From NCBI GenBank assembly GCA_019787685.1, contig JAHNUO010000023.1:248001-312000 (forward strand): a stretch of DNA of 64,000 nt, given 5' to 3'. The position numbers and the translations under genes were made by a program. Shown piece after piece: positions 6,158 to 56,212 of this stretch (positions are counted from its first letter, which is position 1; each line of letters begins with the position of its first letter). The notes under the pieces are model-generated. The model saw only the letters and a list, made by a program, of their open reading frames with translations. It was not told the origin of the DNA and did not search any database. The DNA comes from Chiua virens. Its lineage: Eukaryota > Basidiomycota > Agaricomycetes > Boletales > Boletaceae.

Positions 6158-6550
6158 ATTCTTCTCTTCTTACCATATTCCCTACATCCCCTTCTTGAAC
6201 TGTATCATCACCTTCACATCCATCTTTAGATTGTGCCACTTCTTGTTTTCTACCATGTAGATGAGTCATCACCACTGTGGAATGTCAAACAGAGACCCTT
6301 CATCTCTTCAACTTAGTTCTAAGTGCATGCTCGCCCTCTTCAAGGTCAATAATCACATCGGTTCAGTCCTGATGTGTTGAAATATGAGGTGCAACATTTA
6401 ATATGACTCCAAGTGGGGGCTGCTGCTTTGTGACAAAGGGTGCATAGAAATGCCAGGGTGAGAATGCCAGGGTGATATGACATGGATGATTCTGGAGATC
6501 AGGGTCAAGGGCAAGTGAAGTTATCTTTACAAATAGTTGCCATCAGTTGC
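6158..6550. other. No gene seen
   Basis: Anonymous sequence between LTR remnants. No open frame or repeat was recognised. Confidence 0.5.
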
Positions 6551-6853
6551 TATTACAATTTCAACATTTCACCCCTTAACAGACTTCACATTCAATCTTT
6601 CCTAAAAACTTTATAGCATACTTTGCCTCGTGTCAAGGCTGTTCAAAGGTATCATCCAATAGCATTAGTAGCATAGTTCATACTCAGTTTAGAACTCTAA
6701 AATCCATGTAGTATATAGTATATAAACCCTACAAATCAATGCCAGTGGACTCTAACAAAGTTTACTTGGAGTTTTCGTCTCTTCGCTGGACATCAACCAC
6801 CTCTACACCACAACTATCCTCTTAGTAGTCTAGCTTTGTTCTAGGTTGTTTCA
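6551..6853 (+). repeat. Solo LTR, family A, internally deleted (copy A4)
   Basis: It begins TATTACAATT (TG mutated to TA) and ends GTTGTTTCA. It is flanked by GTTGC at 6546-6550 and 6854-6858. At 303 bp it is shorter than A1 because of internal deletions, and the TATA region is partly duplicated (gtatatagtatata). Confidence 0.88.
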
Positions 6854-7259
6854 GTTGCCATCCCAAGGTTTGCTCAAGGGTAGTGCTGCCTGCATCAGTG
6901 AGCTACAGAAACCCATTCCAAAAGAAGGGGGGATCTAAAGCCATGGATCATCCCACTGATATGAGTTGCTCTCAAACCATCCACCCATCATGCATGAGGT
7001 AATCAAGTGCTTCACATCCAGTCAATCATCCAAAGAAGGAAGGAGAGCCATCACATGAAGGGTTATCATAAGGTGTAAAACAAATCAAAGAAATACACTG
7101 TCGCCTTCATCTTCAGCAATCTCAACCATTCAAGCTTCCGGAGCAAACTTCTAGCTTGATTATTACTTACAATTACTTATAACTATGTAGCTGCAGAACT
7201 ACTCTACATCCACTGAGTACCTATCCATCCATAGGTCTATCCATCAATCCATCAGAGCC
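6854..7259. other. No gene seen
   Basis: Anonymous sequence of ordinary composition leading into the G-depleted domain. I found no feature. Confidence 0.5.
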
Positions 7260-7360
7260 CTCACTTAACATTAATGTCCTTCACATATACAATCTACAAT
7301 CTAGACTTCCTGTCCTTACAATCTCCTAATTCCTATCTCTATTTCTTTTTTCTTTTCTTT

Positions 7361-7411
7361 TTTCTTCTTCTTCTTCTTCTTCTTCTTCTTCTTCTTCTTC
7401 TTCTTCTTCTC
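7361..7411 (+). repeat. TTC microsatellite
   Basis: An uninterrupted run of TTC triplets lies inside altered LTR copy A5, a pyrimidine tract that could form triplex DNA. Confidence 0.95.
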
Positions 7412-7524
7412 TGTTTTTCTCTGTTTTTTTTTTCCCGGCCTCCGGCCGGTACTCACCCCCACTCTCTCTTCTTATCACTCATTTCCTACACATCTATCAA
7501 CACATTACTCATCATCACTCACAA

Positions 7525-7540
7525 CCCCCCCCCCCCCCCC
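7525..7540 (+). repeat. C16 homopolymer
   Basis: Sixteen consecutive C bases sit within altered LTR copy A5, replacing a short stretch that reads ccacc in copy A6. The exact length could be a sequencing artefact. Confidence 0.9.
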
Positions 7541-9300
7541 ATACCTGTCCAACTCTATCTTCCTTATCTTTATCTATCACTCACTTCTTATCCTCCAATA
7601 CCATTACACCGTACTTCATACTCAGTTTAGAACTCCAATATCCATCTACTATATAATCCCCATCAATCAATCCCACACTTCTTTAACATTCTTCTCTCAC
7701 CCTTTTCCCCTCTTCAACTGAACACCTCTCTCATCCACCTCTACTACATCTACTTCCATCTTCATTCTACATTCTTCAATCTTCTTCCTGTGTCTCAACA
7801 TCATCTCGTACCATCAATATCAACCCATCACATTCACTCACACTCAATTCCTTCAACCAACCTAGCTTTCAAATACACCCCTCAATTTCTCTTCCATCCT
7901 CACATTACATCATCACACATCTCTCCCCTGTCAATTCACTATCTCACTTCCCAATCTTCTTCAATTTCTCCATCCTGTCAACCTCTCTGAACACAACAAC
8001 TTCACCCCACTCTATCTCATCATCATCCCTCAATTCTTTTCCTCCAACCCTCAATCTAATCAATCAACCTTTCAACTCTCATTCCACACCCGTAACCATT
8101 CTTCCTGACCTGTTCCACTCATCCTTTCTTTCTTTACTCATTTTCTCACTTCCAAATATCCTCCCAATATCTTTCAATTCTTTCTGAAATCTCCTTCCAC
8201 ACCAATTTCTTCACCAGCAGCAAACACACCCCCATCCCTCACTTCTTTTTCTTTCAATCAATCACTCAACCCACTTCATCAATACATCAATCACACAACT
8301 CATCCATCCCATCTACTATCTACTCTATCCATCTTATCTCCTCTCCTCACCACCTCTCCCCCATCCATTCTCTCATTTTTCCTCTCTTCCCCAACTTCTC
8401 AATTTCTTCTCCTCTTCTCCCTCCCTTTCTTTTTACACACAATCTTCATTACTACTTCTTACCCTTCCAATCAATTCTTCCTCTTTATATACTACTTCCA
8501 CATCACCCTTCTAATCTCACTATCAACTACATACATATCCTTAACATATCCTATCCCTCAATATCCCTTCAATCTCTACCACTCACACATATCCTAAATC
8601 AATCATACTTCCTCACTCTTGAATATCCTTCCACCCAATCACTTCTCTTCCTTCCCACTCCCTTAACATCACCCACAGTATCCCATCATACTTTTTCAAT
8701 ATCTCTTTCCTCATCTCCCTTAACACTTCAATCTTTCCAATCATAACACTACCCCCCTCAATCACAATCACACTCCCCATCTCACCTCTCATAATTCTTC
8801 TCATCATCCCCTCATCTATTTTTCTCTCAATCTTCCCCACCTTCCTCATTATTTCTTAACATCCTATTAATTCCCAAATTCCTCCTTTTTACTTCTCCTC
8901 CCCCAATCCCTATCCTCAACAGTTCTCTCTTATTATTTCCTGTCCTTCTTTACTCCTTCCCACTTTCTTTCCTCCAATTCTTTTCCTTCCCAGTCTATCA
9001 CATATTCCACTTCTTTTTCTTCTTCTCCCAATTCTCCAATTTCAATTCCTCTTCATTTATACACCACTCATTCTTTTTCCTGTTCTTTATATTCTTGCTT
9101 TTTCCAACTCAATCCTTTACACCATTCAGTCCATACTTCTCTGTCAATTTCCCGTCTCTTTTTCTTTTTTCTTTTTACCTCCAGAGCCTGTCCTTCTCAC
9201 CAGTCACCTAACATCCCAGTTCTCACCTCTATTTTTCTCCAGGTGCTTTTTTCATATCATCTCTTACAATCTCAATCACTCCTAATCACTCACTCCTTAT

Positions 9301-10698
9301 TGTTACAATACTTCCAGGTACCACCTAGCGTAGCCCCAAAACCACCAAGTATCAAGTCGCTGCAATAACTCAAACAACCACCACTTCATATGTCGTGCGC
9401 TGAAGAGTCAAACAAGGCTTTCTGGTCAGCAGATCGCTACCAGAGAGACAAGTGAAAACTCAGCCCTTGCTGAGAGTCGTCCCGTTGCAAATCTATACCC
9501 GACGCACCGTCGTCGGTCCAGGGTTGACTGCAATCAGTCCCAGTCTTCAAGTAGGACTAAGAGTAGTCCGGTCAAGTGCTCACAAGCCCTGTCGCAAGTG
9601 GAGCAGAGATACTCAGCTACATTGCAGAGATCAACACTAGAGTACAACAGTATCGCTGCCAGGTATTTATACTACCCGGATAGTGCACGCACCAAGTAAC
9701 TAAAAGGGGAGGGCAGAAGAGTGGAAGAGCAAAGAGCCCAAAAGGGAAGTGCACTATGTCTAAAAAGGGGTGGCCAAGAAGAGCAGAACAGAACAAAGGG
9801 CCAAAAGAGAAAATCGTATGATGCAAAGGCAGCGGACAATGACAAAGAACAAATGACTAATGCAAAGTCATCGGATGCTGACAAGAAAGAAATGAGTAAG
9901 TCCAATGCCATCGGAAGATGACCAGCACAGAATGAGTAAGCACTCGGGTTAGGCCGGTGCGGGGTTACGTATGAAGAAAGAAGATGAAGAAAGAAGAACA
10001 AGTACGGATGAACGTTGAAGGTAATAAATCCCGGCTGTAGTGCAATACTCAGGGGGATTGAAAGAAAAGAAAAGAGGGGGTGAAGGAATGCGATTCCATT
10101 CGACCCAGGGACAACACTGAGTTGGTGAACAACAAATAATGGTTCTTGAGTAGTCCGAGATGAATCCGGGGCAAATCCAGATTAAAACGGATAGAAAAGC
10201 GGACACAGCAGTCCAATTCCGGATCAAGAAAATACGAGAAGAGTGAGGGAAAACGAACGTCAAGGGAAAACAATGTGAGACAGATGCACACGGGCAAAAG
10301 CTACTGTATTTTGTCAATACAGTGAATTTATAGTCCTCAGGAATACCCTCAGACGCATCCTAAGTAAGGAAAATAATAATAAAAAGAAGGTTTTCATATG
10401 GTATAAAGTTTGAGAGACACCTGAATGTCCCTGCAAGGACATGGTCTAGCCAATGCTCAGTATGAATAAGGAGCATCAAAAATAAAATAAAAGAGTCCAA
10501 GGCAAAACGAGTGCAGATATAGCAATCTGGATGAGTTCGCACAAGCAGACAGATCAGGATCGGGATTGGGTGACAACGGGGTACAGAAACGTGCTATGCG
10601 AGCACAGGGAATACCTATTCCCTACAACGTACGATGATACCTGTAGTATCGAGGTGAGTGAAATAGTACAAGTGAAGCAAAGGAAAGAAATCATAACA
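9301..10698 (-). repeat. Family B LTR split by a nested element (copy B3)
   Basis: The plus strand starts TGTTACAATA and ends CATAACA, the reverse complement of a family B LTR. After removal of 10016-10626 and one ACGT copy the two halves join colinearly: B1's ctacaggtaccaacctacgt matches across the junction. Base composition is normal, so this LTR was not subject to the G loss that ends at its left border. No outer target duplication is visible (cttat versus aagac). Confidence 0.88.
10016..10626 (-). repeat. Nested solo LTR, family C (copy C1)
   Basis: This 611-bp unit has TG...CA ends and perfect 4-bp ACGT duplications (10012-10015 and 10627-10630). It is nested in LTR B3 and is the reverse complement of copy C2 at 31721-32333. 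On the minus strand it begins TGTAGGGAATAGGTATTCCC, a near-palindrome, and carries a TATA-like ggactataaattc. The short open frames on its minus strand recur in C2 but look like no known protein. Confidence 0.9.
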
Positions 10699-12836
10699 AA
10701 GACAGGGTTTTCGGTGGGGTGAGACATTGGGAGCTGACATGACTTCCAATGAGGACCACTCAGTAACAGCTCAGCTCATCTTCGTAGTTCCTTCACAGTC
10801 CAGAATGAAATATGCTGATTTTTGATCTAAGTATAGTTTAAATCATTGCACTCAACAAACCACAACAGAGGGACAAACCAGATCAAGGGACAAGAAAGAA
10901 TCAATCATGTTCATACTCAAGCTGGACCCAAGGAGCCATAAACCTAAATCCCAGTCCCCTCTGAAAGTGAACAGGTAATAAATGTTGAATTTCCTATGAT
11001 GACTGAATTCGTCCACATCAAATCAATTGAGAAACATTGTGCCCACCCCAAATGTACTGGCAGCCCCAGGGAAGTACTCGGTGCATGAGTCTGGATCACG
11101 TTGACCCTCATTCACTCGAGTAACCTCAACATCTTTATTTCAACAGCAGATGTTAGACTCATGGTGTTCCTGTGTGTCCATCATGATAGGCTCATCGACA
11201 GCCATGGGTTGCACAGAACTTGAATCCCAGCTGTCCCTGGAAAAGAAGTCCTTACCTAGATGAATAAGAGTGTAAGCACAACCCTCAAGCTGCCAGTGCG
11301 GCCATTTCTGGAAAAAGAAAGGTGCTCACCAAGGCAAACAAGAGTGTCAGACCAATTGGAACAACCTGATCTTGACTGGCTCATATGTTTTGCCACAGCT
11401 TTGTGGTCTTTGAAACCAGCTCTGCCACAGGAGGGACAGCAGGGTAGTGTTGCTGTGGCTATGGCTTTTAGCCAGCTTGAGTCATAGCCGAGCTGATGGC
11501 TATGCAGACTGAGTTGGGTTACCGGCTCATTGGATAGCTGACTCCCGATTGTCAGCTTAAGCTAGCTTAGTCAGCTTTGGGTCAACTTGAGCCGGGCTGT
11601 CACTGCCAACACTACACAGTGAATCAACTACATACTAAGTTACCCCAGCCCTTGATGTATGTGGAATACAGCTATGAAAATTTATCTATTAAGAGTACAA
11701 AAAACTCGTAGCCATACTCAGTCACAGTGAAAGATCAAATGTGTCAGGGGACTGAATGCAAAGAAGGATAAAGTGGTTCTTACCATTGGCATGTTGATGC
11801 CAACAGTTGGGGTGGTTCTGGGATGTCAAGAATGTCAACATCCTCCCCACCATTGACAGCACCTTTGTCAAATGCGGGGATTTTAAGCGATGGAAGGGTT
11901 CACTGTACATAATTTTTCTCTATTGCCAATTAGAGGCACATGTCTCTAAGAGAAAGCACACTTGAAAGTGTCCCCTGGCAGATAGTGGAGACAAGCTGGG
12001 TTATACCTGCTATTTCCCTCATGTTTCCACTTGAGAGCATGTTGATGATGAGGTATGTGAAATCTGTGCAAGCTGGGAAAAACAAAGTTAGAAGCTGTAG
12101 AGAGGTTAATAGTGAGGTACACACAATCCTAGGCCACTAGTCATGGTCTGAGGACCCCCTGGGTATGACCTCTGTACCTTCTGATCCTAGCCTGAGGGCC
12201 AGAATATGTTGGTGATTTTGGTGAGCTGTCCCAGGCTGTGTGACATGGCAAATCCATGCAGATTTGCCATGGAAGGATTGGCTTATGATGATATCGTGAT
12301 GGGTCCAGATGGGGCATCATGGGATGTGAATAGAAACGACAAGTCAGGGAAGATATAGCCATGCTGGTGCATGTAGGAAAAGGGATCTAGAAAGTTAGCT
12401 CTAGGTTGTTTGGAAGTATGGACAGTGTAACACACCATTGACCTGGTTACTAACTGTGATGGTGAAAACAACAAGGACTTCCTAGCCTTCAGTGCTGGCA
12501 TCAAATGTACTGGTCCAGACATGGAGCAGCAGCACACTGCAGGGGAGAGAATGATGACCGAATGGCCAAGGCTGGTCTGTGGGATTGACCATGACACTTG
12601 TCAGCAAATCATCATGGATCAGACTCATGATAGAGCAGTTAGAGATATTATGTTCTGGAGGCTGATGAGATTGGGAACTGCATGTGACTGAGCATAGAGC
12701 ACTGCAAAGGAAGATAATGAATGATGGAGAAGGGACTGAAAGAGTGACAGTGCCACTGAGTCTGTGTGTGAGAATGGAATCAACCATGACTGCCACTTCA
12801 ATGTTTCAACAATTGCACACAGATACATAGCACAAC
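10699..12836. other. No gene; AGCT-rich imperfect repeats
   Basis: No gene could be supported over about 2.1 kb. At 11440-11610 there are dense AGCT/GAGC motifs in both orientations, suggesting an old inverted-repeat element. Near 11240-11350 two related segments each run ctggaaaa to caagagtgt. A short plus-strand stretch at 11822-11905 (VNILPTIDSTFVKCGDFKRW) looks protein-like, but I cannot name it. Confidence 0.4.
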
Positions 12837-30103: not shown

Positions 30104-31200
30104 TCAAACCATCTTGGCCTTCTTTGAAGTGTCATCGTCCTCACTGTTCTCATTGTCCTCCAAGTCACTCTCATGACGGTGCTTCAAACCCCAGAAGGTC
30201 GCAGTGACCCATTCGTCGTATTGGTTGTGACTTGTCATCTTGACTCCTAGCAAGATGTCTTCATTGAATGACCAAAGTGATATGAGAAAAGTAGTTTGGT
30301 AGGAAATCAAGGGTACTGTTACGATCTCAATGTTTCACCCTCATATGGATTATACCTTCAATCTTTTCTGACACTCATGCCTCATGACAAGGCTGTTCGC
30401 AGGACCATATCCTATTGGCTGCCACATAAACATAGCCCATTCACACAACTACACTTCTTATGACTTGATTCCTACATGTGTATTCACACATTACTCATCA
30501 TGACTTATACCCACCAGATACCTGTGCAAGGCTATGCTCTTATCTATGACTCACCTTTGTTATTGTCCAATAGTATTTCTCTGTAGTTGGGCAAACCACT
30601 GCAGTAAGAGCTTGCATTTATGAATGCACCATAATCCAGATATTCATGTGACAGGGTCTTCCATACTGTGTTTTTCCACATCAGGCTCTTGTAAGGCCTA
30701 TCTTCCTCAATGACAACAAGGATAGCCATGCAAATGGATTTGAATGATTTTGCAAGAGAGATGAGACCATTTTGAGTGTCCATGGATGTCTGAGTGAATG
30801 CGACTTGACAGACAACTGGGATATTGGAGTGGATCAGCCATCTTTCACCCCAAACAACAATGAAACATTGGGGACAATCTTATTTTTCCCCACTCTTAGC
30901 TCCTTGTTGTGGTAGATTTTGGCATATAGAAGGCCTTTGGGGAAGGGAAGGTACTTCTCCTCCTGAGTCAACATTTCATCTAGGGTGTTGATCGAATATT
31001 CATGTACATCTGTTGGCCACTTCACAAAAAGCAGGCTGCAATCACTGAAGTAGGAGAATCTGGTCTTTTTTTTAGTGTGATTGGCAGACAATATGGTCAA
31101 TACTGACTGCAGTTTGCCCCAAATGCTTGGATATTGAGAAATGAGGTAATTGATAATGTCAAATTGTTCCTCTGAAACAGGGGATAATTTCTATAATACA
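30104..31200 (-). pseudogene. Hypothetical protein, possibly PD-(D/E)XK-like, interrupted
   Basis: Minus-strand traces read SEEQFDIINYLISQYPSIWG, then LSANHTKKKTRFSYFSDCSL, LYAKIYHNKELRVGKNKIV, IPVVCQVAFTQTSMDTQNGL and AILVVIEEDRPYKSLMWK. The order resembles basidiomycete hypotheticals with a nuclease-like core, but the catalytic residues are not clear. An LTR fragment (30317-30553) separates the last part (SLWSFNEDILLGVKMTSHNQ and an acidic tail). Frames change between blocks. The assignment is tentative. Confidence 0.4.
30317..30553 (+). repeat. LTR fragment, family A (copy A6)
   Basis: It begins TGTTACGATCTCAATG and follows A1 colinearly to ctcttatctatgactca, where it is cut off. It is the best comparator for the 5' half of altered copy A5. 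Confidence 0.85.
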
Positions 31201-32671: not shown

Positions 32672-35600
32672 AATGGTGACATCAAGTTCACCACCACCCT
32701 CCAGATTGCTCTTGGCGGAGTACTCCAATGTGTAAAGTTCCACATCATCCATTGTGGTTCTGAGAACATAATCCTTGGCCTCCCTTGGCTTAAGGTGACC
32801 AACCCCACCATTGACTGGGTCACCAAAACCATCACCATCACCACTCCCAAACCCAACTTCCCCCCTATCACCCACGATGAACCTTGCCACTCCGCCAAGC
32901 TCACTCACCCCCTGCCGGTCATCCCGACCTGCCACATCGACGTTGATCCCATCTGGGACGGCAAAATCTTCGACTACCTCAGCACCGAAACTGGGCACTA
33001 TTTCACAACCCAATCTGTGCAACACTCTGTGAACCACATCATGCACGCGGGTCAACACTTCGTTTGGACCACTCTACCGGAGAAGCTCACCAACACTACC
33101 GCCCTTGCAGCCACAGCCACCAAAGCCAAGGTCACCCTCCCTTCGGAATACTCGGAATTCAAATCCATGTTCGCAAAGGAACCCTCCACTCAGATGCCCC
33201 CCTCTAGGTCCTGTGATCACGAGATCCACCTAAAGGACACCTTCTAACCCAAGGTCGGAAAGGTCTACCCCTTGTCTCCTGACGAGCGCAAGGCCACCGA
33301 CGACTTTATCGACGAACACCTTGCCAGCGGCAAGATCCGCCCTTCAAATTCCCCTCAAGCCTCCCCCTTCTTCTTTGTCAAGAAAAAGGACGGCAAACTC
33401 CGCCCCTGCCAGGACTACCGCTACATTAACGAACACACCGTTCGTGACGCCTACCCCCTTCCCCTCATCTCCAACCTCGTCGATAAGCTGAAGGATGCCA
33501 AACTGTTCACCAAGTTTGACGTCCGATGGGGCTACAACAACATCTGCATCAAGGACGGACACCAATGGAAAGCCGTGTTCATCACGCACTGCGGCCTCTT
33601 CGAACCTATGGTCATGTTCTTCGGACTGACAAACTCCCCCACAACATTCCAGCGTTTCATGAACGAGTCCTTCCGTGACATGATCGCCAAGGGATGGCTC
33701 GTCATTTACATGGATGACCTCCTCATCTTCTCCAAAGATTACGCTACACACACCGAACGCACCAAACACATTCTCGCTCACATGAAGGAACTCGACCTTC
33801 ACCTCAAGCTTGAGAAATGTCACTTCACCACCACTGAAGTAGAATATCTCGGCATGATCGCTCGCCCCGGCGAACTCGCCATGGACCCTGTCAAGGTCGC
33901 TGGCATCACTGACTGGCCCACTCCGACCAAGCTCAAGGATGTCCGATCATTCATGGGCTTCACCAACTGCTACTGCCGGTTCATTCTGGACTACTCTACC
34001 ATCACCCGTCCCCTCATCAATCTCACCAAGAAAGATGCGCCTTGGATCTGGGACAACCCCCAGATCACTGCCTTCGAACACCTTAAAAAGGCATTTACCT
34101 CTGATCTGGTACATCACTTCCCGGATACCTCTAGACCCTTCGCCATTGCCACCGACGCTTCCAAATTTGCATTGGATGGTGTCCTCCTCCAGACTGACTC
34201 AAATGGCGACTGGAAACCTTGCTCCTATCTTTCGCAGTCTTTCAACGCCGTGGAAAGGAACTATGACATCTATGACTGCAAGTTACTCGCCGTCATTAGA
34301 TCCCTCAAAGCATGGCACCATTACCTCCACGGTAGCACTACTCCTGTGACCATCTTCTCGGATCACAAAAACCTTACCTACTTCTGACAACCCCAAAACC
34401 TCAACCGTCGTCAGGCCCGCTGGCTTCTCGACCTTGCCAACTTCAACCTCACGTTCTCCCACATGCCAGGCAAACTCCTTGATGGTCCGGACGCACTCTC
34501 CCGTCGTCCCGACCATATCACCTCAGACTCAGACAACGAAGATGTTACTCTCCTTCCAGACAACATCTTTGTAAACCTCGTCACTACCGACCTCCAGGAC
34601 CTGATCTCCCGCTCCTCTGCCATGGACCCACTTGTCCTGGACACTCTCAATGCCATGGATGGCAGCCTCCTGCTGTCATTCCGCTCCTGCCTCTCCGACT
34701 GGTGCTATGATGCCAGTGTCCTGACCTACCAAGGTCGCATCTACATCCTGCCTAACTGCGAACTCTGGCAACAAATCATTGCCCGCCACCACGACTCCCA
34801 CACTGCTGGACATCCTGGCTTCTTGAAAACTCGCCAGCTGGTCGCCACTGAATTTTGGTGGCCCGGCCTTGCTTCCTTCGTCCGCTCCTATGTCTCTAGT
34901 TGCACCTTGTGCGAACAACACAAGGTCAACACCCATCCTACCACACCCCCACTCTCTCCAATCCCTTCCGCGTGCACCCGCCCGTTCCAGAACGTTTCTG
35001 TTGATCTCATCACAGATCTCCCTGTTTCTGCTGAGGGATATGACTCTCTCATGGTCGTGGTAGACCATGGCCTTACAAAGGGGGTAATTCTTTGCCCTAT
35101 GGTGAAAACCGCCGACTCTGCAGGTATAGCCTGCCTCTTCTTGCACAAAGTCTACATGCGATTCGGCCTCTACGACAAGATCATCTCTGACCGAGGTCCA
35201 CAGTTTGCCTCCACATTCGCAAAGGAGCTCTCCCGACTTATCGGATACTGCCTCTCCCTCTCCACCACCTACCATCCTCAATCCGATGGTGAGACGGAAC
35301 ACATCAATCAAGAAGTTGAGATGTATCTCCGCATGTATTGTCAAAACAATCCGGAGAAATGGGCTGACTTACTCCCTATGGCCGAATTCGCACACAACCA
35401 TCACCCCCACTCCATCACCGGCAAGTTGCTGTTCTTCCTTATGATTGGCTACGAACCCCGTCCCTTGCCCGCTATCATTGCGGAAACCAAACTCCCCGCC
35501 ATTGAGGAACGCCTCAAAACCCTTTCCACCGCCCACGACGAAGCCCTCGCCGCACACAAACTCACCTGGCAAGCCATGAAAGCTCATTCCTTTAGAAAGT

Positions 35601-42654: not shown

Positions 42655-45090
42655 AATTGTTAAGTTAGTCAGCATTGGGTGAGAATATCACTCTGACATG
42701 CCCACAGTGAAATCATCACTAGGTAGCATTAGGTAGGCATGTCAATCTTGCTGCAACATGTCCTTCGTGGAGGGCCATGCACACAGTGAGATCATCATTA
42801 ATCAACACTGGGTAGGAACTGACTTGTAGCATGTCCTTCCTGGAGGGACATGCACACAGTGAGAGTATCATTAGTCAGCATTGGGTCAGAATATCACTCT
42901 AGCCTACAACATGTCCTTCCTGGAGGGACATGTACATTGTGAGACCACCATTAGTCAGCATTGGGTAAGACTATCACTCTGGCCTACAGCATGTCCTTCC
43001 TGGAGGGACATGCACACTGTGAGATCACCATTAGTCAACATTGGGTCAGAATATCACTTTGGCCTACAGCATGTCCTTCCTGGAGGGACATGCACACTGT
43101 GAGATCACCATTAGTCAGCTTGGGTAAGAATATCACTGTGGCCTGCAGCATGTCCTTCCTGGAGGGACATGTACACTGTGAGACCACCATTAGTCAGCAT
43201 TGAGTAAGACTATCACTCTGGCCTACAGCATGTCCTTCCTGGAGGGACATGCACACTGTGAGATTGCCATTAGTCAGCTTGTGTGAGAATATCACTCTGG
43301 CCTGCAGCATGTCCTTCCTGGAGGGACATGCACACTGTGAGATCACCATTAGTCAGCATTGGATCAGAATATCACTGTGGCCTGCAGCATGTCCTTCCTG
43401 GAGGGACATACACACTGTGAGATCACCATTAGTCAGCATTGGGTCAGAATACCACTCTGGCCTGCAGCATGTCCTTCCTGGAGGGACATGCATACTGTGA
43501 GATTGCCATTAGTCAGCTTGTGTGAGAATATCACTCTGGCCTGCAGCATGTCCTTCCTGGAGGGACATGCACACTGTGAGATCACCATTAGTCAGCATTG
43601 GATCAGAATATCACTCTGGCCTGCAGCATGTCCTTCCTGGAGGGACATGCACACTGTGAGATCACCATTAGTCAGCATTGGGTCAGAATACCACTCTGGC
43701 CTGCAGCATTCCTTCCTGGAGGGACATGCATACTGTGAGATTGCCATTAGTCAGCTTGTGTGAGAATATCACTCTGGCCTGCAGCATGTCCTTCCTGGAG
43801 GGACATGCATACTGTGAGATTGCCATTAGTCAGCTTGTGTGAGAATATCACTCTGGCCTGCAGCATGTCCTTCCTGGAGGGACATGCACACTATGAGATC
43901 ACCATTAGTCAGCATTGGATCAGAATATCACTCTGGCCTGCAGCATGTCCTTCCTGGAGGGACATACACACTGTGAGATCACCATTAGTCAGCATTGGAT
44001 CAGCATATCACTCTGGCCTGCAGCATGTCCTTCCTGGAGGGACATACACACTGTGAGATCACCATTAGTCAGCATTGGGTCAGAATACCACTCTGGCCTG
44101 CAGCATGTCCTTCCTGGAGGGACATGCACACTGTGAGATTGCCATTAGTCAGCTTGTGTGAGAATATCACTCTGGCCTGCAGCATGTCCTTCCTGGAGGG
44201 ACATGCACACTGTGAGATCACCATTAGTCACCATTGGGTGGAAATATCACTGTGGCCTGCAGCATGTCCTTCCTGGAGGGACATGCACACTGTGAGATCA
44301 CCATTAGTCACCATTGGGTGGGAATATCACTGTGGCCTGAAGCATGTCCTTCCTGGAGGGACATGCACATAGTGAGAGTATCATTAGTTACCATTGGGTA
44401 GGAATATCACTGTGGCCTGTAGCATGTCCTTCCTGGAGGGACATGCACACTATGAGATTACCCTTAGTCACCATTGGGTGGCAATATCACTGTGGCCTGA
44501 AGCATGTCCTTCCTGGAGGGACATGCACATAGTGAGAGTATCATTAGTTACCATTGGGTAGGAATATCACTGTGGCCTGTAGCATGTCCTTCCTGGAGGG
44601 ACATGCACACTATGAGATTACCCTTAGTCACCATTGGGTGGCAATATCACTGTGGCCTGCAGCATGTCCTTCCTGGAGGGACATGCACACTATGAGATTA
44701 CCCTTAGTCACCATTGGGTGGGAATATCACTGTGGCCTGTAGCATGTCCTTCCTGGAGGGACATGCACATTGTGAGATCAGCATTAGTCTCCATTGGGTG
44801 GGAATATCACTGTGGCCTGTAGCATGTCCTTCTTGGAGGGACATGTCTACTGTCAAATCTCAATTAGTCAGCATTATGCCCATGTCTGGCTGTCCTTCCT
44901 GGAAGGACAGAACATAGTCCAGAATCACAATGGGACATATACTTTGTGATATAAAGAAGACATCACATGACAATTCTTCCCATGTGTGAGTGTCCTTCCT
45001 AGAGGGACATATCAGATATTGAAGCTCTAGAGATCACATAAGCTAGGGTATTTTACCCATGTGTAGGATGTCCCTCTAGGAGGGACATGT
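42655..45090 (+). repeat. 80-bp hairpin satellite, main block
   Basis: Roughly 28 head-to-tail 80-bp units with the core catgtccttcctggagggac, then gatcaccattagtcagcatt and atatcactctggcctgcagc. The core can fold: ATGTCCTTC pairs with GAGGGACAT. The last units (44.86-45.09 kb) keep only the hairpin. Overlapping open frames arise because 80 is not a multiple of three; they are not genes. Confidence 0.95.
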
Positions 45091-48067: not shown

Positions 48068-50275
48068 TGGGTAGCAGAACATGAGCATGAGCTTGGAGGA
48101 GCTTGGGGTAGCTTGGGGTAGCAGAGCATGAGCATGGGGAGCATGGGAGATCATGGGAGATCATGGGGGAGCATGGAAGAGCATGGAAGAGTATGGGGTA
48201 GCATGGGGTAGTAGAGCATAGCAGAACATGAGGGAGCATGGGGGAGCATGGGGGAGCATGGGAGAGCATGGGAGAGCATGGGAGAGCATGGGGAGCATGG
48301 GGTAGCAGAGCATGAGCATGAGGTAGCATGGGGTAGCATGGGGTAGCAGAGCATAGCAGAGCATGGGAGAGCATGGGAGAGCATGGGGTACCATGGGAGA
48401 GCATGGAAGAGCATGGGGTAGCATGGGGTAGCAGAGCATAGCAAAACATGGGGGAGCATGGGGGAGCATGGGGGAGCATGGAAGAGCATGGGGTAGCATT
48501 GGGTAGCAGAGCATAGGGGGAGCATGGGGTAGCATGGGGTAGCATGGAAGAGCATGGGGTAGCATGGGGTAGCAGAGCATAGCAGAGCATGGGAGAGCAT
48601 GGGAGAGCATGGGGTACCATGGGATAGCATGGAAGAGCACGGGGTAGCATGGAAGAGCATGGGGTAGCATGGGGTAGCAGAGCATAGCAAAACATGGGGG
48701 AGCATGGGGGAGCATGGGGGAGCATGGAAGAGCATGGGGTAGCATGGGGTAGCAGAGCATAGGGGGAGCATGGGGTAGCATGGGGTAGCATGGAAGAGCA
48801 TAGGATAGCATGGGGTAGCAGAGCATAGCAGAACATGGGGGAGCATGGGGGAGCATGGGGGAGCATGGGGGAGCATGGGGGAGCATGGAAGAGCATGGGG
48901 TAGCATGGGGTAGCAGAGCATAGCAGAGCATGGGGGAGCATGGGGGAGCATGGGGGAGCATGGAAGAGCATGGGGTAGCATGGGGTAGCAGAGCAGAGCA
49001 GAGCATGGGGGAGCATGGGGGAGCATGGGGGAGCATGGGGTAGCATGGGGTAGCAGAGCAGAGCAGAGCATGGGGGAGCATGGGGGAGCATGGGGGAGCA
49101 TGGGGGAGCATGGGGGAGCATGGGGTAGCAGAACATGGGGGAGCATGGGGGAGCATGGGGGAGCATGGGGTAGCATGGGGTAGCAGAGCAGAGCAGAGCA
49201 TGGGGGAGCATGGGGGAGCATGGGGGAGCATGGGGGAGCATGGGGGAGCATGGGGGAGCATGGGTAGCATGGGGGTAGCATGGGGTAGCAGAGCATAGCA
49301 GAGCATGGGGGAGCATGGGGGAGCATGGGGGAGCATGGGGTAGCATGGGGTAGCAGAACATGGGGGAGCATGGGGGAGCATGGGGGAGCATGGAAGAGCA
49401 TGGGGTAGCATGGGGTAGCAGAGCATAGCAGAACATGGGGGAGCATGGGGGAGCATGGAAGAGCATGGGGTAGCATGGGGTAGCATGGGGGAGCATGGGG
49501 GAGCATGGGGGAGCATGGGTAGCATGGGGGTAGCATGGGGTAGCAGAGCATAGCAGAGCATGGGGGAGCATGGGGGAGCATGGAAGAGCATGGGATAGCA
49601 TGGGGTAGCAGAGCATAGCAGAACATGGGGGAGCATGGGGGAGCATGGGGGAGCATGGGAGAGCATGGGGGAGCATGGGGGAGCATGGGGTAGCATGGGG
49701 GAGCATGGGGTAGCATGGGTAGCATGTGGGTAGCATGGGGTAGCAGAACATGGGGGAGCATGGGGGAGCATGGGGGAGCATGGGGGAGCATGGGGGAGCA
49801 TGGAAGAGCATGGGGTAGCATGGGGTAGCAGAGCATAGCAGAGCATGGGGGAGCATGGGGGAGAATGGGGGAGAATGGGGGAGAATGGGGGAGAATGGAA
49901 GAGCATGGGGTAGCATGGGGTAGCAGAGCATAGGGGGAGCATGGGGTAGCATGGGGTAGCATGGAAGAGCATAGGATAGTATGGGGTAGCAGAGCATAGC
50001 AGAACATGGGAGAGCATGGGGGAGCATGGGGGAGCATGGGGGAGCATGGGTAGCATGTGGGTAGCATGGGGTAGCAGAGCATAGCAGAACATGGGGGAGC
50101 ATGGGGGAGCATGGGGGAGCATGGAAGAGCATGGAAGAGCATGGGGTAGCATGGGGTAGCAGAGCATAGCAGAACATGGGGGAGCATGGGGGAGCATGGG
50201 GGAGCATGGGGGAGCATGGGGAGCAGAGCATGAGCATGGGGGAGCATGGGGGAGCAAAGCATGAGACAGCATGAG
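48068..50275 (+). repeat. G-rich decamer satellite (AGCATGGGGG)
   Basis: About 2.2 kb is built of 10-bp units AGCATGGGGG, AGCATGGGGT and AGCATGGAAG with spacers AGCAGAGCAT and AGCAGAACAT. The + strand has closely spaced G4-G5 runs able to form quadruplexes. All three minus frames stay open for more than 700 codons, as expected from a stop-free 10-mer, giving repeats of Cys/Pro/Met/Leu/His. I read these as non-genic. Higher-order units of roughly 100 bases or more repeat within the array. Confidence 0.96.
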
Positions 50276-50384: not shown

Positions 50385-53300
50385 CTATGACATCCTCCAC
50401 TCTACGTATCTAAGAAACACTTCAATTACCTTACTGCAGTATCCTGGAGATGGCCTCTCCAGTAGCCACTTTGCATAACCATCCAAGTCCTTGGATAACT
50501 TTCCAAATGGATTATTCTTCCACAGATGGATGTTGGGCGCCTTCCAAATTGCAATTAATGTTGGCACTATAATGTCTTCCCATTCGCATGGGGCATCTGA
50601 CAATGTGAAGGGACCATGCAGCATATCAGCACAGGATGGCACATGACACTTCCAGCAGATTCCTTGGTTTTTTGTGATAGAAGTTGGATAACGAATTTTC
50701 TTCTTCCAGTCCATGACATAGAAAAATCCTCCAAACCACTCCTTCAGATTAGGGCATGTATACATGGTGTCATGTTTGCATGGTTGCTGCAGAACATAAC
50801 AGACACCACATCCATGGTCCTTGACAGCATTGAGAGCCATTCGGATTCGATCAGCGTCTTCAATCACAGATGCAAGGCGGTCTGCACGCTGCCGCTTTGC
50901 CATGATAGCAGCAGCTTCGAATGTATCATGTGGTAAGCAGTGTGTGTTGTCAAGCAGGCGTTTTGATTGTTGTGATGGCCACACTGGTTCAGGCCGTTGT
51001 TGGACACATTTCGCAAGGTCCTTGGAATATTGTGCAGCACCAGGATATATTGTTGTCGTGTGGTTCGTCATTGTGCCTGCCTTGCAGATAGAGCATGGGA
51101 TGTTTTCCTGATCTTCACTGCATTGCATTCCTTTTCCATCGATGTAGAATGTTGATTTGAAACGGAGACACTGTGTGGCGGCCTGACTGTATGCATAGTT
51201 GTGTGCATACACATGTCCTTTGTGATCGTGGGTGGCAGGAGAAACTTTGGGAAGTTGAGGACTTGATCCAGGAAATACTATGCATCGGGCCCGGTTTCCA
51301 TCCCGTCCTCCACGGCCCTGTGCTTGAATAAAGTCACTCATGTCCAATGCCATTTTGAAGTGGACAATGAGCCGGACATGAGGGTAATCATTTCCGGTGC
51401 TAAAGGCACTGGTACAGATCATAACAGGGGTGGCGCCACATCTCCATTGATTGTAAATTGCCATCCTGGTTTCATCAGTCACAGTCGGTGCTCCAGAATA
51501 GAATGGCCAACCACTCTAACCACCAAATCAGGAAATGTAATGATCCATGGAAATGGGACTCACCAAAGATGCCAATTCCTCTCCATCATCAATATAAGCA
51601 ACAAAGATAAGTCCTCTATCATGTGGAGCCCATTCCAACTTCTCCTGGGCTACTGAATCAATGATTTGCCTTGGGATGTTATTGGTTGGAAGTGGTCCCT
51701 TGAGAACATACTCCAACTCTGGTCGATTGCTGCTTTGACGAATCTCCACTGCATTGTCCAATAATCCAAATGTCTCTTTCAGAGCTGGAACGCTTCCAGG
51801 AGGCACAGTCCCACTGAGCAAGATGACTTGCACACATTGCTCTCGTAGCTCTCTGACATGGGCAAGGGAGGAGCGGAAATCATGCGAGAGTAATGGGAGA
51901 TGAGCTTCGTCAAACACCAGGCGAGTAATCGGAAGGTCTTCATTAAGTTTTGCAATTTGAGTACGCCATCCACCAGTTGCTGCTCGATCTGCAGACACAA
52001 GAATCAAATTGATGCCAGGATTGAGCTTTCCTCCATGAGTAGATGGATTATACTCCTGATAGGGAATGTTCATATCTTCCAGCTTTCGCTGCCAATCAGT
52101 CATCAGGGACCTCAATGGCAAGATGACAATGATGCCTGTGTTTGGTGATAGCTTGGCAGGAAGTATGGCTAGCATAGACTTTCCACCACCAGTCTTCAAC
52201 ATAGCAACCACATCTGTCTTGCGTTCAATGACAGCAATAACAGCATGCTTTTGTTCATCTGAAATCCATGTAGCCTCTGGGTTCTTTAAGGTATGTTGCA
52301 GAACTTCAAGACACTTCCTTTCAGTGTTGGGCATTTGATATGTTGAATCTTGAGATATATTCTAAGGTTAAATAGAAGAAAATGTATTTCAATGGAATCA
52401 CATACTGAAATCATGTGAGCTTGACATATTGGATGTCATGTGAGATTGGTCATGGGAATGCTCTGAGTTCATAACCTCAAGATTAGCTGGTTGAGGTGGT
52501 ATTTCTAGAATCCATTGGTAAACAAGTGGAGATGATTTCTAAGATGATGACACTTACGTGTCTTTGTGTGCATGGAAACCATATCTACCTGTGGACTGTC
52601 ATAGAGTTCTTCAAAGTCCATATCCTCAAGGTTTGTTCCTAATGCGTTGTTTTCTAAGAGGTATTTGTAAGTAAGAATAGGTTTAAACATAATTGTACAT
52701 ACCAGTCTGCTTTGGTGTGGAAAGTGGATTTGCATCAATATCCATGCCATCCATATTACATGGGCTTTTGGCCACTTGTGATGACCATTCATCGTCATTG
52801 AGGGCCTTTTTGATTGTGGATATGATGGTAGGGTTGATGTTCTCTATGAATGCCTTGATTAAACGAGCTTCCATTCCACTAAGCATCATGTCTGTGATTC
52901 GTTCCAAGATTCGATCCACAATACGGTCTTCAGAGATGTTTGGTTGATGTGATTGAAGGTTGCCCAGTACATCTCTCTGTAAATCCTTGCCCAGTTGACC
53001 TGACTTGGCGAGATGATGGAAGTTGGCCAAACCAGAATCCTTGTATGATAGACCTAGTCCACCTGGCATGGTGTGCATAATTTGCTGCCATTTGACACTA
53101 GCATCTAGGAAATGAGGAAGAAGGTCCTCTGCAGCACCTGCCAGAGCATCAGGGCTGAGACCATAAACACGATTCTCAGTTGCTCGCGAGTGACCAGCTT
53201 GTAATGCATCAACTGTTTCACCTTCATCAAGGTCTAATAGGTCTTCAGTATAATTTGCCAGCTTTCGCTTGAAGGCAATGCTAATGTGACGCCATGGGTT

Positions 53301-56212
53301 GACTGTGAGCTTGCACTGAACATGCGGTAAACTTGCACGACCCATAGTATTGCTGAGATCTTTGGTAGTGAATAGTTTATCCACATTGACAAAGATGTGG
53401 TTTTGATAGAGATGCAAAGTATCTTGTGGATTTGCATAGCAGAGGAATATAGCAAGCTCTGCAAATGGTCTTGCCAGTGCCAGGGATTGAATCATGAGGT
53501 CGCTGGTAATGCTATCCAGTGAATGGGGAATAAGCTTGTCATGACCAGTCTGGGATCCCATCTTGTTATATTGGCGAAGAAGGGCTACATGCCTTCCAAG
53601 GACGACTAAATTTCGCTGGGAGCGATACCTGGTGTTGCAGAAGACCATGGGAGTGAGCTCTGTGCCACGTCCTGGTGCACCACTGAGCATTTCGCAACGC
53701 ATGAGGAGATGTCCTTGAAATTCAGCATAGTCTCGAAGCCAATGTTGAAGTGCTCCACGATTCCATTCCATGGTTCCTTCAGTGAAGCGTCCAAAGAAGC
53801 GCCGGACATCTGGATTAGCCATAAAAGCATTGGCCAATGCATCACGATTATTGAAGCAAGTGTTGCGAGTATCTGTGAGAAAGGAATAATTGACTTCATG
53901 ATTGTCCAATGAATCCGAAAGGTGATCATAGGAGATGTGCAAATTAATGCCTTTCAAAACCTTTTTTTCCCAAAGGTCTATAATAGTTTCTCCACTGGAT
54001 TGGAACATAGTCCTCAGCTGGTCAAGGTGAATTCGGTCTCCCTTGAACAACATATGTTTCCAGTTTGTACGATCCAGCCACCAGATGCAAGGTAAGCTTT
54101 GTGTCTGGAAAGAAACCGAAGATGCATAATGTTGCAAAGCCCGAATGCGACTGAAAGGGGAGTTGGATTTCTCTGTAAACCATGGAAGAAGGTCATTGCA
54201 AGTATTGATCTCATTGCCTTCATGCTTGATGGGAGCAAGGTGTTTGATCTCCAAAAGACAGGTGAGACGAATGCAGTATTGGAATTTAGCGAGGTAACCA
54301 GTGATATCTTTGGGTTCCAAATGTCCACCATCTTTTTTGAGGGTATAGAGAATGAGGAGGCGTTCTGTAGGACAGGGGATATGGTTTTCAAGTGACCTGG
54401 TCCATGTGGCTAGCCAAAGGCCACACAAGAGCTCATGCAATATAGGAATAGCATCACTTTGAGATTTGTTTTGAAGTGTAGAGTGCAATCGTTCAACTTG
54501 ATCCTTCACCTCCTGAGGTAGTGGGATTTGATAGTGATTTTGAGATAATGACCGGATCAACATGCAGAGGAGACCAATGGTGGGTCGAATATATCTTTTT
54601 AGGGTTTCTGGTTCTTGGTGTGGTTGGAATGGAGTATTAGATATACCACTAGAAATTCCAAGTCAGATTTAGAATTGACCACAAATGTTTATGAAACTAC
54701 TTACTCTGACTTGGGATCTGGAGAATTCAACATTTGCCTAACCAGGTCATCCGAATACCTCAATGTTTCCATTGCATTTTCAAAGTATTTCTGGACCACA
54801 CTTCTAATTCCTGGAACTTGAGGATCCAGGTCAAGTGTGTCTGGAATTTCTACCAACTTGCGGAGTTTATGAGGGTCATATCCAGCAATGTGCTCATGCC
54901 AGCGAGTGAAGCGGAGCCAGGGGGAGATGAGCCGCTCATCTTGAGGAGGTGGTTGAACTTTCATATTTTGTGACATTTTGTGACGGATAGCTTCAATTAT
55001 CCCATGAGTGATAGGCTCTTGGGAAATCGACATAGGAACAGCCATGGGGGTAGAATTGGCAACCTGCCATAGCATACGAGAAGGACCACCTGCATTGAAC
55101 TGTTGCATCTTGCAAGATATCCATTTCTGAGGGGTAGGAATATTTGGATGGGCGAGGTTGTGATGGGCTTTCAGATTCTTCTTTGATCCCAAGACACATG
55201 GGCATGTAGAACAGGCAAATCCATCCAAAAGCTTCAAACCTTTGAATGCTGGCATGCCTTCCATGGTAAGTGGAGGTTCAGGAAGATCCTCTGGCAGGCC
55301 TAAAAAAGCAACCAGTTCATCAAAGAAGGTTGTTTGGAGTTTAGTACCATGATGCTTGTGGCGTAAGTGGCCTGGAACCTGATCTGGAGTCAGGGCTACA
55401 AGACAAATGTTGCAGCAGAAAGCATTGAGAACAGGATCGATCACAATGTTGATACTGTTCAAAAATGGATGATGGAGTAACTGGTCTGTTGGATCTAAGG
55501 TCTGGACAATGTGAGTGTTGTTGTCTGCAGTATGCTCATTGAACATTGTACTTACTGGTAGAGACAGGATTTCTAAATTGCAGATAGGATCACCATTGTG
55601 GTCACTCTGGTGACTGTCCAGAATGCCAGATTCTGCACTCTAAGAACCAGTATCAATAGAGAAGGCCTGTACTGATATAATTGTACACACCTCTGCATCC
55701 ATCTGTTCCAAAGAACCACATGTGTTAGCAAGTGCTGTTGAAGAATCCTGTGAAGAAAGGTATACATGTGAGAGAATAGTCTAAGAAAAAGAATATGACA
55801 CATACACCATTTTTTTCCTGAGCATCTAAAGAAATACTTTCATGGTTAATAGATTCATCCATGGCATTATCCTTATTTGCTGTGTTATTGTCCAGGAACT
55901 ATAACAGATGAAAAGCTAGGATACCAAAACATGCTACCAATGACTCACATTTGATGGATTTACCCATGTCTTCCGCTTGCGTAGATGCTTCTTTAGGCCC
56001 TCCAAAGTGGAAAACCCTCCTTCCTTAGAACATCCACCCACTGTACAATGACATTGGTAATTGTTTTGTTCATTCATCTGAACTGTAATCTGGCCAAGTT
56101 CTGGAATAGTGATGGTGACACTATCACTAAGACCAACAATGCATCGCTTTTGATGCTTAGAGTATTCTTTGCAAGTATTAAAGTCAAGCTTACACTTTCC
56201 ACAAGTGGGCAT
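50385..56212 (-). CDS. Zinc finger-tyrosine recombinase-like-RecQ helicase fusion protein
   Basis: Nine exons can be joined on the minus strand: 56212-55949, 55898-55808, 55734-55691, 55639-54705, 54648-52703, 52653-52558, 52504-52406, 52348-51564 and 51515-50385. All eight introns are GT-AG, 48-73 bases long, and every phase matches, giving 1796 residues with no internal stop. Cys/His clusters occur at residues 4-24, 54-80, 209-229 and 276-297. Residues about 770-940 fit a tyrosine recombinase: Arg772 in GAPGRGTEL, Arg898 in PWRHIS, His931 in AGHSRAT and Tyr940 in NRVYG. The C-terminus is a RecQ-type helicase: TGGGKS at 1211-1216, DEAH at 1305-1308, SGT at 1337-1339, QAQGRGGRDG at 1484-1493, then Cys-rich segments. 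The start could be an in-frame ATG 51 bases upstream, and an ATG at 52334 could start the helicase separately. The recombinase call rests on motif spacing only. Confidence 0.82.

What the first reader, a model, noticed from the sequence alone, without database searches (positions are those of the whole stretch)
7260..9300. Two-kilobase domain where G has been almost erased and replaced by C
Seen: over about 2 kb most 60-base lines have 0-2 G while A, C and T remain. A family A LTR inside it can be aligned by eye: of twelve G positions in A1 2561-2630, eight are C, one is A and three are kept in 7610-7679, whereas four normal sister LTRs (A2, A3, A4, A6) keep G at most of these sites. A second stretch (7470-7580 against A6 30455-30552) shows the same bias. 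Known mutational silencing in fungi (RIP) gives C-to-T/G-to-A transitions, not this. Inference: a strand-specific process producing C-to-G on the minus strand, for example cytosine deamination, uracil removal and Rev1-type insertion of C opposite abasic sites, acted on one tract. I know of no description of this in basidiomycetes.
Basis: partly seen in the sequence, partly recalled or inferred. Interest (0 to 1): 0.88.

Follow-up and report, generated by a model that had tools for sequence, protein, structure and literature searches.

The report
One-strand G-to-C hypermutation tract
In what appears to be a basidiomycete fungus, about 2.4 kb of transposon-rich DNA has had most Gs on one strand changed to C while the other bases were largely spared; this points to an intense one-strand mutation process that the best-known fungal mutation pathway does not explain.

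Summary
Window 7236-9315 is nearly G-free (50 G in 2,080 bases; longest G-free run 400). Alignment to repeat copies with normal G shows true substitution. At sister-conserved sites in the alignable core, plus-strand G became C at 111 of 146 (15 A, 6 T, 14 kept); C was kept at 158/160, T at 301/316, A at 180/214. GC content is unchanged where compared; purines moved to the minus strand. The same plus-strand change hits an LTR lying forward, an LTR with adjoining interior lying in reverse, and the first 400 bp of a third repeat, so a genomic strand was hit after nested insertion. In that third repeat (to about 9690) the tract is unsaturated, 26/111 G to C, with little else changed; the next repeat has 0/175. 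Five sister copies of the third repeat show 0-2.5%. RIP does not fit. My best model is repeated exposure of the minus strand, lesions at C (probably deamination and uracil removal) and Rev1-type C insertion. The genome has UNG-like exons and a Rev1-like gene; no deaminase was found (one family tried). Under 1% of the genome could be scanned; reads and species are unknown.

The parts
7236..9315 (-). Core: near-complete loss of plus-strand G (minus-strand C)
   Evidence: Two-change-point fit (50 G in 2,080); substitution counts for its alignable parts
9301..9690 (-). Right shoulder: 26 of 111 conserved G (9301-9700) changed to C, other bases nearly intact, one 1-base deletion
7466..7785 (+). Ty3/Gypsy-type LTR (3' part) in forward orientation, G converted
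8437..8748 (-). LTR of the same broad family in reverse orientation, plus-strand G converted
8749..9265 (-). 3' end of retroelement interior, reverse orientation, plus-strand G converted; many gaps against relatives
9301..10023 (+). Repeat B (starts TGTTACAA); converted only up to about 9690
7786..8430 (.). Part of the core with no recognisable relative
   Evidence: best score 198.7 against null 176.7
6600..6854 (+). LTR left of the tract, not clearly affected: 0 of 30 G to C at sites 70% conserved among 17 copies, 1 of 36 at 50%
10014..10631 (+). Repeat right of the tract, not affected: 0 of 175 G to C against three other copies
7350..7410 (+). (TTC)n microsatellite inside the core
7435..7449 (-). 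G+C palindrome holding six of the surviving G; predicted DNA hairpin with a 6-bp stem that contains all six partner C

Best explanation
A 2-2.5 kb stretch of transposon-rich DNA was exposed, probably more than once, with its minus strand single-stranded. Cytosines on that strand were damaged, most likely deaminated to uracil and excised to abasic sites, and the plus strand was resynthesised by translesion synthesis that inserted C opposite the lesions (Rev1-type). Each round turned G:C into C:G. Shown: polarised G-to-C change on one genomic strand, at 76% of conserved G sites in the alignable core (111/146) and 23% in the shoulder (26/111), across three transposon units in two orientations, with a right limit near 9690 and a left limit between 6854 and about 7240, and with C, T and mostly A spared. 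Inferred: that the lesion was on C rather than on G, the deaminase, the single-stranded state, the role of Rev1, and that there were several rounds (from the two-level density).
For: Substitution is mostly G to C on the plus strand: core 111/146, shoulder 26/111; reverse C to G 0/160 and 0/74 (Fisher p about 2e-48, computed with the shoulder count 29/124 of the laxer). Controls: five sister B copies give G to C in 0, 1, 1, 5 and 4 of 191, 195, 192, 198 and 176 sites; four other copies give G to C of 0.1-0.9% in pooled pair counts. Of 1,064 overlapping 200-base repeat bins with at least 30 scorable G+C sites, nine have 6 or more G-to-C sites; eight lie in window 7401-9800, one at 33401. GC content of 8437-9265, 38.4%, matches a sister's 38.7%, while plus-strand purines fall from 50% to 24%. 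The same genomic strand is hit whichever way the element points. Minus-strand C-to-G with few C-to-T and C-to-A at non-CpG sites (core 99:4:6; shoulder 20:3:0) is the product expected of C insertion opposite abasic sites. UNG-like exons lie in order at two loci, and a Y-family gene with a weak BRCT match reads as Rev1. Six surviving G have their partner C in one predicted hairpin stem, as expected if pairing protects single-stranded DNA. Shoulder sites are commoner where the minus-strand C follows a pyrimidine (21/56 against 8/54, p 0.009 uncorrected, one of several contexts tried).
Against: About 90% of C on one strand hit (132/146 G sites changed) is far denser than any kataegis I recall. 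Yeast with UNG1 and APOBEC3G gives C-to-T and C-to-G about equally (41.7% and 46.9% of 96 mutations, PMC3521656, passages); the tract is much purer (p 0.003 shoulder, 7e-13 core non-CpG). A-to-T change in the core (27/214, commoner beside a sister G, 18/93 against 9/121) is not predicted by cytosine deamination; it is near absent in the shoulder (1/98), and a neutral alignment puts A loss higher, 42 of 117. No AID hot-spot preference. No deaminase identified (uninformative). The Pfam UDG model found nothing at E<=0.01, and the one UNG-like ORF scanned had no Pfam hit. CpG transitions do not confirm deamination of methylated C, because a CpG-to-CpA excess also occurs outside the tract. The hairpin could be a later insertion.
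Confidence: 0.45

Rival explanations
1. Guanines on an exposed plus strand were heavily oxidised (oxazolone, hydantoins), and polymerases put G opposite them, giving G:C to C:G on one strand.
For: Guanine oxidation products other than 8-oxoG are reported to pair with G or to give G-to-C (abstract openings of PMC7589758, PMC5537945, PMC4918129). The shoulder preference for G followed by a purine fits guanine stacking (stacking recalled; GG more readily oxidised, abstract opening of PMC4763079) as well as it fits YpC on the other strand.
Against: G-to-T is expected too, but is 0 of 124 in the shoulder and 6 of 146 in the core. Needs almost every G in 2 kb oxidised.
Confidence: 0.15
2. The plus strand was resynthesised by an error-prone or pool-starved polymerase that lacked dGTP and used dCTP (and some dTTP) opposite pyrimidines.
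For: Explains why purines in general decline in the core (A to T 27/214; more) and, perhaps, the many gaps.
Against: The shoulder shows about a quarter of G sites hit but A, C and T nearly intact, so the primary defect is specific to G:C pairs. C opposite undamaged C is a very poor mispair (recalled).
Confidence: 0.12
3. Slow, locus-specific strand-asymmetric mutation, for example transcription with an R-loop that becomes self-reinforcing as the minus strand gains G, rather than discrete bursts.
For: Two-level density and near saturation suggest repetition; the minus strand of 7450-9300 is now 75% purine. The CpG-to-CpA excess right of the tract hints at a wider strand asymmetry.
Against: Ordinary changes are few: C to T 2/160 in the core and 1/74 in the shoulder, so it would have to be fast. 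The right limit is abrupt (6/25 in 9601-9700, then 0/21).
Confidence: 0.15
4. Sequencing or assembly artefact, for instance heavily modified bases on one strand misread in the consensus.
For: Reads could not be seen; only one such tract was found in the part scanned; many gaps in 8431-9270.
Against: C and T are read as expected in the same stretch; the shoulder has 26 G-to-C changes, one indel and few other changes apart from CpG transitions. G-to-C is not an error type that I know for any platform (recalled).
Confidence: 0.08

Closest known systems
Kataegis (strand-coordinated mutation showers; APOBEC and BIR models in yeast: PMC3628087 abstract opening; PMC6765108 passages)
   Same: Kilobase size, same-strand changes at C, C-to-G among the products when UNG is present
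   Different: Near saturation, C-to-G at 99 of 109 changed non-CpG core sites, no strict TpC motif, in an apparently natural genome
Ig hypermutation in DT40 cells lacking pseudogene donors (PMC449846, passages)
   Same: Transversion-dominated, preference for G-to-C and C-to-G, few A/T changes
   Different: There G-to-C and C-to-G both occur, with AID hot spots; here one strand only and no WRC preference
Repeat-induced point mutation and CpG decay in fungi
   Same: Acts on repeated DNA
   Different: RIP gives C-to-T/G-to-A transitions (recalled); here transversions. The sister copies do show the transition type
APOBEC hypermutation of retroelement cDNA
   Same: Minus-strand C hit in bulk
   Different: Would follow element orientation and give G-to-A (as abstracts); here the genomic strand is hit across opposite orientations and gives G-to-C

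Membership tests
RIP | C-to-T/G-to-A transitions dominate | tested here: not met
   G to C 111, G to A 15, C to T 2 in the core
Kataegis | Changes confined to one strand over about a kilobase or more | tested here: met
   G to C 111/146 and 26/111; C to G 0/160 and 0/74
Kataegis | TpC (APOBEC) context | tested here: inconclusive
   Pyrimidine before C 21/56 against 8/54, p 0.009 uncorrected, several contexts tried; core saturated
Kataegis | Association with a break or rearrangement | not testable with these tools
   No reads or sibling genome
Uracil excision and Rev1 bypass | C-to-G among main products | tested here: met
   Non-CpG C>G:C>T:C>A 99:4:6 core, 20:3:0 shoulder
Uracil excision and Rev1 bypass | Host encodes Rev1 | tested here: met
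   L046 gene: IMS domain pieces over cut-off; BRCT (24.6 against 27.3 bits) and POLH-Rev1 HhH (21.2 against 27) below theirs; my reading as Rev1
Uracil excision and Rev1 bypass | Host encodes UNG | tested here: inconclusive
   TIGR00628 exons in order at C5 and C1, best E 3.4e-14, each below the whole-protein cut-off; Pfam UDG nothing at E<=0.01; one ORF without Pfam hit
Uracil excision and Rev1 bypass | A DNA cytosine deaminase | tested here: inconclusive
   Only PF14441 tried, no match, none in the 14 controls either
AID-type somatic hypermutation | WRC hot spots | tested here: not met
   GYW on plus 5 of 26 changed to C against 24 of 98 elsewhere in the shoulder
Diversity-generating retroelement | Changes at template A | tested here: not met
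   A kept 180/214, T kept 301/316, G kept 14/146

The most novel reading that the evidence does not exclude
A basidiomycete-type fungus has a natural, recurrent single-strand hypermutation process acting on nested transposons, using cytosine deamination and Rev1 C insertion to convert one strand almost completely: a genome-defence or repair by-product distinct from RIP, in effect a natural kataegis driven to saturation.
Probability: 0.25. Interest if true: 0.92.

Novelty: new variant of a known kind. Interest (0 to 1): 0.8.

Why it matters
Strand-coordinated C-to-G hypermutation is known from tumours, antibody genes and engineered yeast. A natural tract in a fungal genome, with a saturated core, an unsaturated shoulder and clean sister copies as reference, would allow the lesion, the polymerase and the trigger to be inferred from DNA, and would add a second mutational fate for fungal repeats beside RIP. 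It also shows how a stretch can lose one base on one strand while keeping its GC content.

Tried and rejected
Rejected: chance or low-complexity expansion (homology over about 1.1 kb; reversed-sequence null far lower); RIP (spectrum); element-strand editing of cDNA (opposite orientations share the genomic strand); an LTR subfamily naturally poor in G (18 LTR copies aligned; at the 24 columns where most copies have G and the tract has C, on average 87% of copies have G, the lowest column 46%); a known RNA gene (no Rfam match at gathering score in 6500-10700). The CpG outcome looked diagnostic for deamination (11 G to A and 12 G to C against 4 and 99 elsewhere, p 6e-7; the CpG class is partly inferred) but was demoted, because CpG-to-CpA excess is also seen outside the tract (18:7 in 10014-10631, 8:2 in 9701-10023). 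Part of the T-to-C and A-to-C counts I put down to C-to-T and G-to-A decay in the sisters (inference). Indels in 8431-9270 (24-67 deletions and 23-41 insertions depending on penalty and copy) were not credited to the process, because the relatives there are distant; the shoulder has one. A first left-flank homology was self-overlap and fell to null level on masking. No other match in the genome for 6855-7350, 7780-8320 or 8320-9300 by seeded DNA search. Species not identified: in the pol search (best 120 of 6,982 listed) the best hit, 60% identity, is labelled with a Neobacillus record, and basidiomycete names (Phellinidium, Pleurotus, Lyophyllum) come at 41-44%; that the host is a basidiomycete is inference.

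Literature: nothing matching was seen in the listings (open-licence PMC only). Passages were read from PMC3521656, PMC6765108 and PMC449846; other papers were seen as listings or abstract openings.

In one search the LTR 6600-6854 was aligned as reverse complement, so its C-to-G value of 4.8% (pooled pairs) is plus-strand G-to-C; by site it is 0 of 30, or 1 of 36 at a lower threshold.

Full report
What is there. Window 7236-9315 is a stretch in which G has nearly vanished from the plus strand: 50 G in 2,080 bases, 0-7 G per 250 bases from 7501 to 9000, one run of 400 bases without G. In the rest of the window the longest G-free run is 56. In 226.6 kb of other loci held from the same genome (some overlap each other), no 200-base window fell below 7% G or C. 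The genome has 48.3 Mb in 136 contigs, and the window is C23:248001-312000.

Homology. A genome search with 7430-7700 lists 40 places, the top five besides itself being LTRs with normal G content matched over about 215 bp at 72-75%. With a substitution matrix learned from the data, 7466-7785 aligns to four LTRs (scores 462-512) and 8431-9270 to seven retroelement copies (500-596); the latter read backwards scores 59-83. 8437-8748 is an LTR and 8749-9265 the adjoining element interior, both in the reverse orientation. The related element in the window carries RNase H, integrase and chromodomain. 7786-8430 has no recognisable relative.

Spectrum. Polarised by sister copies, site by site (836 sites): G 146 sites, of which 111 now C, 15 A, 6 T, 14 G; C 160 sites, 158 kept, 2 T; T 316, 301 kept and 15 C; A 214, 180 kept, 27 T, 6 C, 1 G. 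A neutral alignment of 8421-9270 gives the same picture with more noise (at its strictest filter 7 of 107 G kept, 66 C, 16 A, 18 T; 64 of 67 C kept; but only 75 of 117 A kept, 28 T and 11 C). So A loss is somewhere between 16% and 36%, and G loss above 90%. Four control copies aligned the same way are dominated by transitions and have G to C at 0.1-0.9%. GC content is unchanged (38.4% against 38.7% in one sister) while plus-strand purines drop from 50% to 24% in the reverse element. In effect, base pairs were turned over.

The shoulder. The next repeat, B (9301-10023), looks normal, but against five sister copies it carries G to C at 8/25, 4/30, 8/31 and 6/25 sites in successive 100-base bins from 9301 to 9700, then 0/21, 1/28 and 1/36; the repeat after it has 0/175 against three copies. 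Sister B copies used as controls have 0, 1, 1, 5 and 4 such changes in 176-198 sites each. In 9301-9700 the other bases are nearly untouched: C 73/74, A 94/98, T 73/75, and one single-base deletion; G to A is 11/111, most of it at CpG. This unsaturated zone shows the primary event with little overprinting: G to C on the plus strand. It also shows that B was in place before the event. On the left, the LTR at 6600-6854 has 0 of 30 (1 of 36 at a lower threshold), and 6855-7235 has no relative to compare.

Strand and orientation. The plus strand lost G in a forward LTR, a reverse LTR with its interior, and B. The process therefore followed the chromosome and not the elements, and acted after nested insertion. 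A blind scan of 1,064 overlapping 200-base bins of repeats, window plus 19 loci, put eight of the nine bins with six or more G-to-C sites in window 7401-9800; the other is at 33401 (7 of 31), not followed. That scan cannot see tract parts too altered for BLAST, and covers about 0.5% of the genome.

Mechanism. The shown facts are strand, spectrum, limits and two densities. On the minus strand the change is C to G. At non-CpG sites C>G:C>T:C>A is 99:4:6 in the core and 20:3:0 in the shoulder. C inserted opposite an abasic site left by uracil removal gives this product. The genome has UNG-like exons in order at two places (but nothing with the Pfam UDG model, and no Pfam hit for the one ORF scanned) and a gene with Y-family domains and a sub-threshold BRCT match that I read as Rev1, plus two other Y-family loci. 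Against it, yeast with UNG1 and APOBEC3G gives 41.7% C-to-T and 46.9% C-to-G (PMC3521656, passages), so the tract is purer (counts worked back from those percentages); DT40 hypermutation prefers G-to-C and C-to-G (PMC449846, passages). The near-complete conversion with few ordinary changes suggests several rounds within a short time. Six surviving G have their partner C in one predicted hairpin stem (z -3.1, 2 of 200 shuffles as stable), which suits protection of single-stranded DNA but is one case. A weak preference for C after a pyrimidine (p 0.009, uncorrected) suits APOBEC-like enzymes or, read on the other strand, guanine oxidation. I therefore hold deamination plus Rev1 at 0.45, with guanine oxidation, biased synthesis, a slow R-loop process and artefact behind it.

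What did not help. Sites taken as CpG show G to A about as often as G to C in the core (11 and 12) and in the shoulder (11 and 9), which would fit methylated C escaping uracil removal, but a CpG-to-CpA excess lies outside the tract too. Some held repeat loci are CpG-poor (0.33-0.48 observed/expected in L037, L039, L040 and the window; 0.69-0.81 in L021, L029, L036) against 1.0 in two 10-kb regions flanking the window, so ordinary CpG decay is probably at work here.

Limits. No reads, no sibling genome, species unknown, whole genome not scannable. Alignment in 8431-9270 has many gaps. The tuned alignment favours the spectrum it learned, but the shoulder and the forward LTR rest on neutral alignments.

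Noticed in passing
window 48089-50256 and 42695-44875: Long tandem arrays: a 10-base GAGCATGGGG-type array of about 2.2 kb and an 80-base array of about 2 kb.
   Followed up: no
window 50388-54563, minus strand: ORFs with DEAD and helicase C domains beside the array, with a 626-aa neighbour without Pfam match; they may be pieces of one helicase-like gene.
   Followed up: no
window 33401-33600: Best spot for G-to-C outside the tract, 7 of 31 sites, in a Ty3/Gypsy pol region, with C to T also present; may be plain divergence.
   Followed up: no
window 9701-10631: CpG decay gives CpA more often than TpG (26 against 9), just right of the tract; five control copies give 11:6, 7:9, 10:10, 3:1 and 3:2.
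   Followed up: partly
window 7525-7540: A run of 16 C inside the converted LTR where sisters have mixed sequence.
   Followed up: no
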